From: Acidobacteriota bacterium
GTDB taxonomy: Bacteria > Acidobacteriota > Terriglobia > Acidiferrales > UBA7541
Assembly (NCBI GenBank): GCA_003166795.1
Contig: PMUS01000110.1
Coordinates: 21,020 to 55,680 of the forward strand
Reading direction: 5' to 3'
DNA length: 34,661 nt
The notes under the pieces: generated by a model
Database searches by the model: none
Told to the model about the DNA's origin: nothing
The model's input: the letters and a program-made list of their open reading frames with translations, nothing else
Shown: piece by piece, positions 26,687 through 28,104 of the stretch
Numbering within the stretch: the stretch's first letter is position 1
How the letters are laid out: the number at the start of each line of letters is the position of its first letter
Position numbers and translations under genes: made by a program

Positions 26687-27109
26687 TTGAGTTCAGCCTC
26701 GAATTCGCTTGCAGAAGCGGCAAAGAAGCACTTCTACGGCACGGGACGCCGCCGGGAGTCCGTCGCCCGCGTGTATATCAAGGTGGGGCCGGCGCTGTTC
26801 ACGGTGAACAAGCGGCCGGTGGATGAATATTTTCGCAACGTCGCGTGGCACACGGCCGCCGTTGAGCCGCTGAAGTTCACGCAGATGCTCGATCAGGTTG
26901 AGGTCAGGGCCCAGGTGAAGGGCGGCGGGGTGGGCGGACAGGCTGGAGCGGTGCGCATGGGAATCTCGCGCGCGCTAGCGAAGCTGAATCCCGAGTTGCG
27001 TCCGGCGCTGCGCAAGAATGGTTTTCTGACGCGCGATCCGCGCATGAAGGAACGCAAGAAATACGGGCAGAAGGGTGCGCGTCGAAGGTTCCAGTTCAGC
27101 AAGCGGTAG
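26687..27109 (+). CDS. rpsI: 30S ribosomal protein S9, TTG start
   Basis: 140-residue small-subunit protein whose basic C-terminal tail reaches the P-site tRNA. Signatures are YGTGRRRESVARVYIK near the N-terminus, KGGGVGGQAGAVRMGISRAL, and GQKGARRRFQFSKR at the end. The frame is open to 26609, but the AGGAGG at 26677-26682 lies four bases before a TTG at 26687, which gives the right length; the upstream codons have no homology. So this ribosomal protein probably begins at TTG. It follows rplM by 101 bases and precedes the structured gap before rpsB. Confidence 0.93.
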   Translation: MSSASNSLAEAAKKHFYGTGRRRESVARVYIKVGPALFTVNKRPVDEYFRNVAWHTAAVEPLKFTQMLDQVEVRAQVKGGGVGGQAGAVRMGISRALAKLNPELRPALRKNGFLTRDPRMKERKKYGQKGARRRFQFSKR

Positions 27110-27118
27110 CAGCACGAT

Positions 27119-27210
27119 CGGCCCGCCCGAAAGGGCTGGGCCGAATTCACGGCCGGTAAGGAACCGGCAGAAAAGGATGCTGTCCCGGTTCGCCGGGATC
27201 CGAAGCATCC
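27119..27210 (+). ncRNA. Candidate structured mRNA leader upstream of rpsB (three hairpins)
   Basis: Three perfect stems follow one another. P1 pairs 27119-27124 with 27138-27143 and continues as GCCC/GGGC around a GAAA tetraloop (27129-27132), with one bulged U at 27137. P2 pairs 27152-27157 with 27163-27168 around AAGGA. P3 pairs 27175-27180 with 27205-27210 and encloses TCCCGG/CCGGGA around TTCG (27189-27192). P3 ends seven bases before GAGGAGGT, the rpsB ribosome-binding site. Nothing resembles a terminator T-run. Candidate role: autoregulation by ribosomal protein S2 or transcript processing. The pairing is read directly; the function is inference. Confidence 0.6.
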
Positions 27211-27228
27211 CTTCAATGAGGAGGTATT

Positions 27229-28104
27229 TTGGGAGTCGAAATTACGATGAAGGAGCTTCTGGAGGCTGGCGTTCATTTTGGCCACCAGACGCGTCGCTGG
27301 AACCCGAAGATGAAGGAATACATTTTCGGCGAACGCAATGGAATCCACATTATTGACCTGCAAAAGACCCTGAAGCTTTTCCGCGAGGCGGCGCGCTACG
27401 TCTCCGAACAGGCAGGGCAAGGCAAGAGCGTTCTATTTCTGGGAACGAAACGCCAGGCGCAGGAAGCCATCTCCGAAGAAGCGCAGCGCTGCGGAATGTT
27501 CTACGTGAACCACCGCTGGCTCGGCGGCACGCTTACCAACTGGGCCACCCTTCAAAAATCCATCAAGCGATTCAAGCTGCTGAAGGCAATGTCCGAAGAC
27601 GGGCGCATGGCGCAGTTTTCAAAGAAGGAAGGCGCGCGCCTGGACCGCGAGCTAAAGCACCTGCAGCAGAATTTTGCCGGCGTCGAGAACATGACCACGC
27701 CCCCGGACACGATGTTCGTGATCGATCCGAATGCGGAAGTGATCGCCGTGCGTGAAGCGCGCCGGATGGGCATTCCCGTGGTCGCCATCGTGGATACGAA
27801 TTGCGACCCGAACCTGGTTGACTGGGTCATCCCCGGCAACGACGACGCTCTGCGCGCCATTCGTCTGTTCACCTCCAAGATTTCCGATGCGGTTGTCGCG
27901 GGCCGGCAGTCGTTCGAGCAATCCCAAATCGCCGATCAGAAGGCGGCCGAGGGCGCGGGCGGTGAGGACGGACCGGAATACGTGGACACGAGCGCGTACG
28001 AACAGTACGAGAAGCAGGAAGGCGACTTCGTCGAAGGCGAGCCCGTTGCCGCCGAAGAAGCCGCGGCGCCCGTAACGAGCGACGAAGAGACTCCTGCCAA
28101 GTAG
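27229..28104 (+). CDS. rpsB: 30S ribosomal protein S2, TTG start
   Basis: 291-residue small-subunit protein. The N-terminus [25 protein letters not shown] and the next block [17 protein letters not shown] are definitive, as are [22 protein letters not shown], and [23 protein letters not shown]. The last 50 residues are an acidic extension ([20 protein letters not shown]), longer than in E. coli. A GAGGAGGT site ends at 27225, three bases before a TTG at 27229; the only other choice, ATG 27247, would drop the residues before MKELLEAG. So rpsB also seems to use TTG. It follows the three-hairpin leader and precedes tsf. Confidence 0.96.

What the first reader, a model, noticed from the sequence alone, without database searches (positions are those of the whole stretch)
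27119..27210. Three consecutive perfect hairpins in the rpsI-rpsB gap: candidate new ribosomal-protein leader RNA
The 119-base gap folds into P1 (10 bp plus a bulged U, GAAA tetraloop), P2 (6 bp, AAGGA loop) and P3 (outer GGATGC/GCATCC, inner TCCCGG/CCGGGA, UUCG tetraloop). Two of the three loops are stable GNRA/UUCG tetraloops, which chance would rarely provide. P3 ends seven bases before the rpsB ribosome-binding site. Established: S2 autoregulates rpsB in several bacterial groups through leader structures that differ between phyla. Inference: this is such a leader in this lineage, or an S2/S9 processing site.
Basis: partly seen in the sequence, partly recalled or inferred. Interest (0 to 1): 0.75.

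Follow-up and report, generated by a model that had tools for sequence, protein, structure and literature searches.

The report
Conserved RNA leader before rpsB
Just before the gene for ribosomal protein S2, this group of soil Acidobacteria carries a conserved folded RNA element that matches no family in the RNA library searched and most likely lets the cell turn down S2 production when there is too much of it.

Summary
The hairpins are real and belong to a conserved RNA. P1, P2 and P3 fold as described, with bulges in P1 and P3, so "perfect" overstates it. No Rfam family reaches its threshold, though Rfam's t44 finds the E. coli rpsB leader. In the window's family, 77 of 77 genomes with a readable rpsI-rpsB gap carry it; the other 12 of 89 lack S2 or its upstream DNA. 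All 67 model matches lie directly before rpsB, one per genome. No match at E<=0.001 came from at least 310 class genomes of other families or the other 395 of 396 phylum genomes. P2 is nearly invariant. P3 changes by compensation: permuted arms pair far worse (16.3 against 11.2, sd 0.37), and the only column pairs passing a tree-based null are three in P3. P3 ends 17-21 nt before the start codon in 76 of 76 leaders, while the distance to rpsI varies from 8 to 301 nt. Best reading: a lineage-specific uS2 autoregulatory leader acting on translation. Structure is nearly certain; the S2 ligand is inferred. Two other families carry different rpsB leaders at this place.

The parts
26687..27109 (+). 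rpsI (S9) coding sequence, upstream gene
   Evidence: ORF; start codon chosen by its Shine-Dalgarno sequence; found upstream of rpsB in relatives by tblastn
27118..27144 (+). P1 hairpin, variable sequence, GAAA loop here; missing in some relatives
   Evidence: folds; arms covary in a set of 27 leaders; mean z -2.8 over 72 of 76 leaders, z below -2 in 46 of 72
27143..27151 (+). conserved flank GAATTCACG (A, C and G invariant at positions 2, 6 and 9; mostly UCACG at its end)
   Evidence: column counts over 76 leaders
27152..27168 (+). P2 hairpin GCCGGT-AAGGA-ACCGGC, the most conserved part (consensus GCCGGC AAGGA GCCGGC), candidate protein-recognition element
   Evidence: fold; conservation; both sides of one pair changed in L041 and L115
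27169..27174 (+). A-rich linker AGAAAA
   Evidence: 82% A over the linkers of 74 of 76 leaders
27175..27210 (+). P3 hairpin: conserved outer 7-bp stem (GGATGCT/AGCATCC) with variable cap (27182-27203; 11-79 nt in relatives)
   Evidence: swap test; tree-null covariation
27211..27224 (+). possible weak P4: CTTC pairs with the Shine-Dalgarno GAGGAGG (27218-27224)
   Evidence: folds (z -0.7, not significant alone); group tendency only
27229..28104 (+). rpsB (S2) coding sequence with TTG start, followed by tsf
   Evidence: ORF; S2 found in 58 of 61 genomes searched

Best explanation
A cis-acting ribosomal-protein leader RNA of the rpsB(-tsf) part of the operon, specific to one family of Acidobacteriota (Candidatus Acidiferrales-like). 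Proposed mechanism: when uS2 is in excess over free 30S subunits it binds the near-invariant P2 element and the adjoining P3 stem. P3 ends 17-21 nt before the start codon, near the upstream edge of the initiating ribosome's footprint. Bound and stabilised P3, perhaps helped by a weak hairpin over the Shine-Dalgarno sequence, then hinders 30S loading on rpsB and lowers S2, and by coupling EF-Ts. Shown: conserved, covarying structure at this one locus with a nearly fixed distance to rpsB. Inferred: the ligand uS2, the repression and the steric mode.
For: Conservation: 67 of 89 family genomes matched by model R1, one match each. Of the 22 misses, 8 have no S2, 4 have no upstream DNA, and 10 of 10 readable ones carry the element. 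All 67 matches abut the S2 start (59 on fetched loci; 8 by coordinates). Covariation: P3 arms pair at score 16.26 against 11.25 (sd 0.37, maximum 12.39 of 2000) when permuted among 74 leaders; 7 of 7 pairs, G-U included, in 85% against 11% for swaps between different cores. Tree-based null over 73 leaders: 3 of 2080 column pairs at E<0.05 (0, 0 and 0.04), all in P3. P1 arms in 27 leaders: 10.3 of 12 pairs against 7.8 swapped. Precedent: E. coli uS2 represses rpsB-tsf through its 5' UTR (passage of PMC10931766).
Against: No binding or expression data. In the tree-null test 10 of the 13 structure pairs are not significant, all six of P2 among them (E 25 to 873), because they hardly vary; P2 pairing rests on stability and a few leaders with compensating changes. 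P3 registers were picked by complementarity; the swap test repeats that picking on swapped arms, the tree test does not. On the 16-leader alignment further pair types were not more than in shuffles (4 against 5.5). No sequence resemblance to 16S rRNA was found. The Shine-Dalgarno hairpin is not significant in the window. In E. coli the review passage says the ribosome-binding site is not part of the operator, so a steric mode there is not established. Only leaders with rpsI found upstream were kept, so synteny cannot exclude S9 or L13. P1 is missing in some (L028 and L029 have a gap of only 91 nt).
Confidence: 0.75

Rival explanations
1. Leader of the same kind, but the ligand is another protein of the operon (EF-Ts, S9, L13), S1, or an S2-S1 complex.
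For: rpsI is upstream in the 76 leaders kept (a condition), tsf downstream; in E. coli S2 needs S1 to repress effectively (passage of PMC10931766).
Against: The element is tied to the rpsB start (17-21 nt) and not to rpsI (8-301 nt); EF-Ts is not an rRNA-binding protein (general knowledge).
Confidence: 0.12
2. mRNA processing or stability element that separates the rplM-rpsI part from the rpsB-tsf part, without a regulator.
Against: A near-invariant P2 sequence and loop and a nearly fixed distance to the ribosome-binding site are not needed for a mere stability stem; distance to rpsI is free.
Confidence: 0.1
3. Transcription terminator or attenuator after rpsI.
For: GC-rich hairpins after a stop codon; the scan gives 2 terminator-like sites (shuffles 0.9, sd 1.0), one being the Shine-Dalgarno hairpin followed by TATTTT.
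Against: No run of T follows P1, P2 or P3; the other site lies inside rpsI.
Confidence: 0.02
4. Chance hairpins or a dispersed palindromic repeat.
For: GC-rich genome.
Against: z -3.9; one match per genome in 67 of 67 matching genomes; covariation.
Confidence: 0.01

Closest known systems
t44 RNA (Rfam RF00127), which covers the E. coli rpsB leader
   Same: Lies just upstream of rpsB-tsf; E. coli uS2 represses through this 5' UTR (PMC10931766 passage).
   Different: Rfam's t44 model finds the E. coli leader (83.5 bits) but nothing in the window; model R1 finds nothing significant in the E. coli region (best 6.4 bits, E 0.58).
rpsB motif of Meyer et al. 2009 (PMC2704228, section 6 read)
   Same: Structured RNA preceding rpsB in many bacteria.
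   Different: [quoted passage not shown] here P1, P2 and P3 stand side by side in the folds, and no covariation outside P3 was seen. Its alignment could not be read here.
L13 leader of Bacteroidia for rplM, rpsI + rpsB (Eckert and Weinberg 2020, PMC7247131; abstract, section list and two passages seen)
   Same: Leader in the same gene neighbourhood.
   Different: Its table row names L13 as ligand and another phylum; a place before rplM is inferred from the gene list.

Membership tests
Ribosomal-protein leader RNA (general kind) | Lies in the 5' UTR of a ribosomal-protein gene, consistently | tested here: met
   67 of 67 matches abut the rpsB start
Ribosomal-protein leader RNA (general kind) | Conserved secondary structure with covariation | tested here: met
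   on 16 leaders only partly
Ribosomal-protein leader RNA (general kind) | Bound by the encoded protein, which lowers expression | not testable with these tools
   no experimental data
t44 / E. coli S2 leader (RF00127) | Match to the Rfam covariance model at its gathering score | tested here: not met
   window 0 matches; E. coli control 83.5 bits against 44
rpsB motif of Meyer et al. 2009 | Long P1 enclosing a three-stem junction | tested here: inconclusive
   the three hairpins stand in a row; the window fold has only a 5-bp outer pairing between the end of rpsI and the start region, and some relatives fold with other outer pairings; their conservation was not tested
rpsB motif of Meyer et al. 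2009 | Pseudoknot between the P2-P3 junction and the 3' extension | tested here: inconclusive
   no covarying column pair outside P3, but variable-length parts were left out
16S rRNA mimic of the uS2 site | Sequence similarity to 16S rRNA beyond chance | tested here: not met
   three leader stretches against the 16S of one same-genus genome, p 0.82, 0.41, 0.84; none found in the window's genome; structural mimicry not tested

The most novel reading that the evidence does not exclude
Within one bacterial class the S2 operator has been replaced outright: at least three unrelated rpsB leader RNAs occupy the same position. Type A is in the window's family f1, type B in family f11, type C in family f7 (66 genomes, plus one in f13); matches of the three models never fell in the same family. 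Four of four readable gaps of family f3 have no room for a leader. If all three bind uS2, the class is a natural experiment in how a ribosomal protein acquires new RNA partners.
Probability: 0.4. Interest if true: 0.65.

Novelty: new member of a known kind. Interest (0 to 1): 0.52.

Why it matters
Ribosomal-protein leaders are a known kind, but no rpsB leader of Acidobacteriota turned up in the literature listings seen here (lists capped at 20, open-licence papers only), and no Rfam 15 family reached its threshold. It gives a compact RNA of about 90 nt with strong comparative support for testing how uS2, which the review passage calls a late and not a primary rRNA binder, recognises mRNA, and whether unrelated leaders can evolve repeatedly for one protein.

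Tried and rejected
Known Rfam family: rejected (the only weak hit, M23, has 19.1 bits against a gathering score of 41.2, E 0.42). Terminator: rejected. 16S sequence mimicry: not found. Shine-Dalgarno hairpin (P4): SD pairing probability 0.41 in 76 leaders against 0.23 in 93 other SD-bearing ORF starts picked mechanically, and 0.39 against 0.29 with shuffled pre-SD bases (higher in 51 of 64 unique tails); the folding energy did not differ (p 0.16); not significant in the window. Kept as suggestive only. Position of the P1 end: 61 of 72 within 4 nt, but shuffles give 70%, so it says little. Common descent of leaders A, B and C: considered from similar flanks (AAUUC, AAAUC), not tested. Leader B: RNAalifold covariation term only 0.06 on 10 of 17 sequences found, so B's structure is much weaker evidence than A or C.

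A first pass with a wrong S9 reading frame was discarded and redone. One paper search was swamped by viral US2 papers and told nothing. Rows dropped: of 78 non-redundant sequences found by the P2 scan, which asked for rpsI upstream, L079 and L102 were dropped because their P2 lacks the conserved motif and they are distant relatives (76 left, including the order-level L115); 74 of 76 were used in the swap test, 72 of 76 in the P1 energy test, 73 of 76 in the tree test. Type C alignment: 21 of 22 sequences, L068 left out as a near copy of L067.

Full report
What is there. The window lies in an Acidobacteriota genome; the closest named records are Terriglobia and Candidatus Acidiferrales MAGs. 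The gene order is rplM-rpsI-rpsB-tsf-pyrH-frr (ORFs; names recognised from the protein sequences). The rpsI-rpsB gap is 119 bases, 27110-27228. Folded alone, P1 (27118-27144), P2 (27152-27168) and P3 (27175-27210) have z-scores of -4.8, -2.9 and -4.3 against dinucleotide shuffles; the 146-nt stretch has -3.9 with 0 of 200 shuffles as stable.

Not a catalogued RNA. Rfam 15 gives no match at gathering scores in the window, in 20 loci of other families, or in 12 loci of which 8 carry leader A or its order-level relative. The permissive search of the 501 bases 26900-27400 gives only M23 at 19.1 bits, E 0.42, far below its 41.2 threshold. The control works: the E. coli rpsB 5' UTR is found as t44, RF00127, at 83.5 bits, and the window's model does not find that E. 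coli leader (best E 0.58).

Conservation. S2 was located in 58 of 61 genomes, and the best 80 loci of named genomes were taken; gaps were read out. A covariance model R1 was made from 16 leaders. In the window's family it matches 67 of 89 genomes, once each. Of the 22 without a match, 8 have no S2 in the assembly and 4 have S2 without upstream sequence. All 10 with a readable gap have the P2 motif and, mostly with long caps, P3: 7 of 7 pairs in seven, 6 of 7 in two, 5 of 7 in one, the last read on its copy L042. So 77 of 77 readable genomes have it. All 67 matches end at the S2 start: 59 checked on fetched loci (in L174 the S2 match begins only at residue 25), 8 by coordinates. Elsewhere: 399 class genomes gave 67 matches, all in this family, hence none in at least 310 others; 396 phylum genomes gave one, the window's own. 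These large searches use stricter filters that lose weak matches, as the ten misses show. One genome of the same order (L115, family f2) is a sub-threshold relative: its P2 has compensating changes (GCCAGC/GCTGGC) and R1 scores 21.4 bits, E 0.004, over 52 nt. Of five genomes sampled in sister family f3, the four with a readable gap (L112, L113, L114, L138) have only 10-19 nt.

Structure evidence. Seventy-six non-redundant leaders were cut into elements. P2 is almost invariant (GCCGGC-AAGGA-GCCGGC; several positions 76 of 76). P3's outer stem appears as 37 different strand pairs. Because its register was picked by complementarity, a control was run with the same kind of picking on permuted arms: the real mean score is 16.26 against 11.25 (sd 0.37, maximum 12.39 in 2000 permutations), and full pairing is 85% against 11% for swaps between different cores. 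A home-made R-scape-like test, with a tree from rpsB coding DNA and a substitution-preserving null, finds 3 of 2080 column pairs at E<0.05. All three are P3 pairs, with 2, 12 and 8 branches where both sides change and stay paired; the other ten structure pairs, all of P2 included, do not pass. On the 16-leader alignment 94.7% of cells pair against at most 49.8% when slid, and the covariation score is 0.119 against 0.067 shuffled (0 of 500) and at most 0.096 slid; further pair types were not more than in shuffles (4 against 5.5). P1 varies freely in sequence. In 27 leaders picked by their flank (genus g5 as far as traced) its arms pair at 10.3 of 12 against 7.8 swapped (maximum 8.74 of 5000), with GNRA loops in 18; four of the 27 do not pair in that fixed geometry. 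P1 is lacking in some leaders, so it is an accessory element.

Mechanism. The distance from P3 to the start codon is 17-21 nt in 76 of 76 (allowed range 15-22), 18 in 49, whereas the distance from the rpsI stop varies from 8 to 301. This ties the element to initiation at rpsB. It is no terminator and no dispersed repeat. The review passages read (PMC10931766) say that excess E. coli uS2 represses rpsB-tsf through its 5' UTR with help from S1, that the ribosome-binding site is not part of that operator, and that the operator has no visible likeness to the rRNA site, though in-cell probing has revealed a common architecture. The present leader likewise shows no sequence likeness to 16S rRNA. The simplest account is that uS2 binds P2 and P3 and hinders ribosome loading. 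A weak hairpin with the Shine-Dalgarno sequence may add to it, but the support is slight.

Wider picture. Other families of the class have other elements at the same place. Type C, a hairpin closed by variable pairs around AAAUCUCGCUUUGGACC, covaries (score 0.457 against 0.219 shuffled, 0 of 500, and at most 0.233 slid; 67.6% of cells paired; the number of pairs with changes on both sides is no more than in shuffles, 9 against 8.5). It occurs once each in 67 of 399 class genomes, 66 of them in family f7 and one in f13. Type B (AAUUCUUCCC...GGGAAU..CAAUCC...GGAUGCA) occurs in 30 of 399, all in family f11, with weak covariation on 10 sequences. Ten of ten fetched loci of each lie before rpsB. 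No match of the models for B or C fell in the window's family.

Literature. Seen: abstract, section list and passages of PMC7247131; passages and section 6 of PMC2704228; passages of PMC10931766 and PMC2864571; all other papers only as search listings. No rpsB leader of Acidobacteriota appeared; these listings are capped at 20 and cover open-licence papers only. The paper on the spread of E. coli leaders (PMC3616713) is not held.

Noticed in passing
L055, L060, L063, L067, L071, L109, L121, L128 and others (alignment A4): A different rpsB leader (type C) in family f7, Bryobacterales-like by record titles: a covarying stem around the conserved loop AAAUCUCGCUUUGGACC, one per genome in 67 of 399 class genomes, no Rfam match in the loci tested.
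   Followed up: partly
L056, L059, L061, L069, L072, L090, L097 and others (alignment A3): A third rpsB leader (type B) in family f11, Acidobacteriales-like by record titles: two hairpins, the second AUCC.../...GGAUGCA with a cap of variable length.
   Followed up: partly
L112, L113, L114, L138: Family f3, same order: the rpsI-rpsB gap is only 10-19 nt in the four readable genomes, so no room for the leader.
   Followed up: no
L041, L042 (same gap as L203), L209: Caps of P3 hold palindromes around GGCTAAAGCC that look like inserted dispersed repeats; the outer stem is intact in L041 and L209 (7 of 7), weaker in L042 (5 of 7).
   Followed up: no
L040 and L208, between P2 and P3: A stretch of 39 and 35 nt, folding as a hairpin in L040, sits in the otherwise 2-9 nt A-rich linker.
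   Followed up: no
window 27229-27231 and 75 relatives: As called by script, rpsB starts with TTG in 66 of 76 leaders, GTG in 7, ATG in 3: a rare start codon kept on a ribosomal-protein gene.
   Followed up: no
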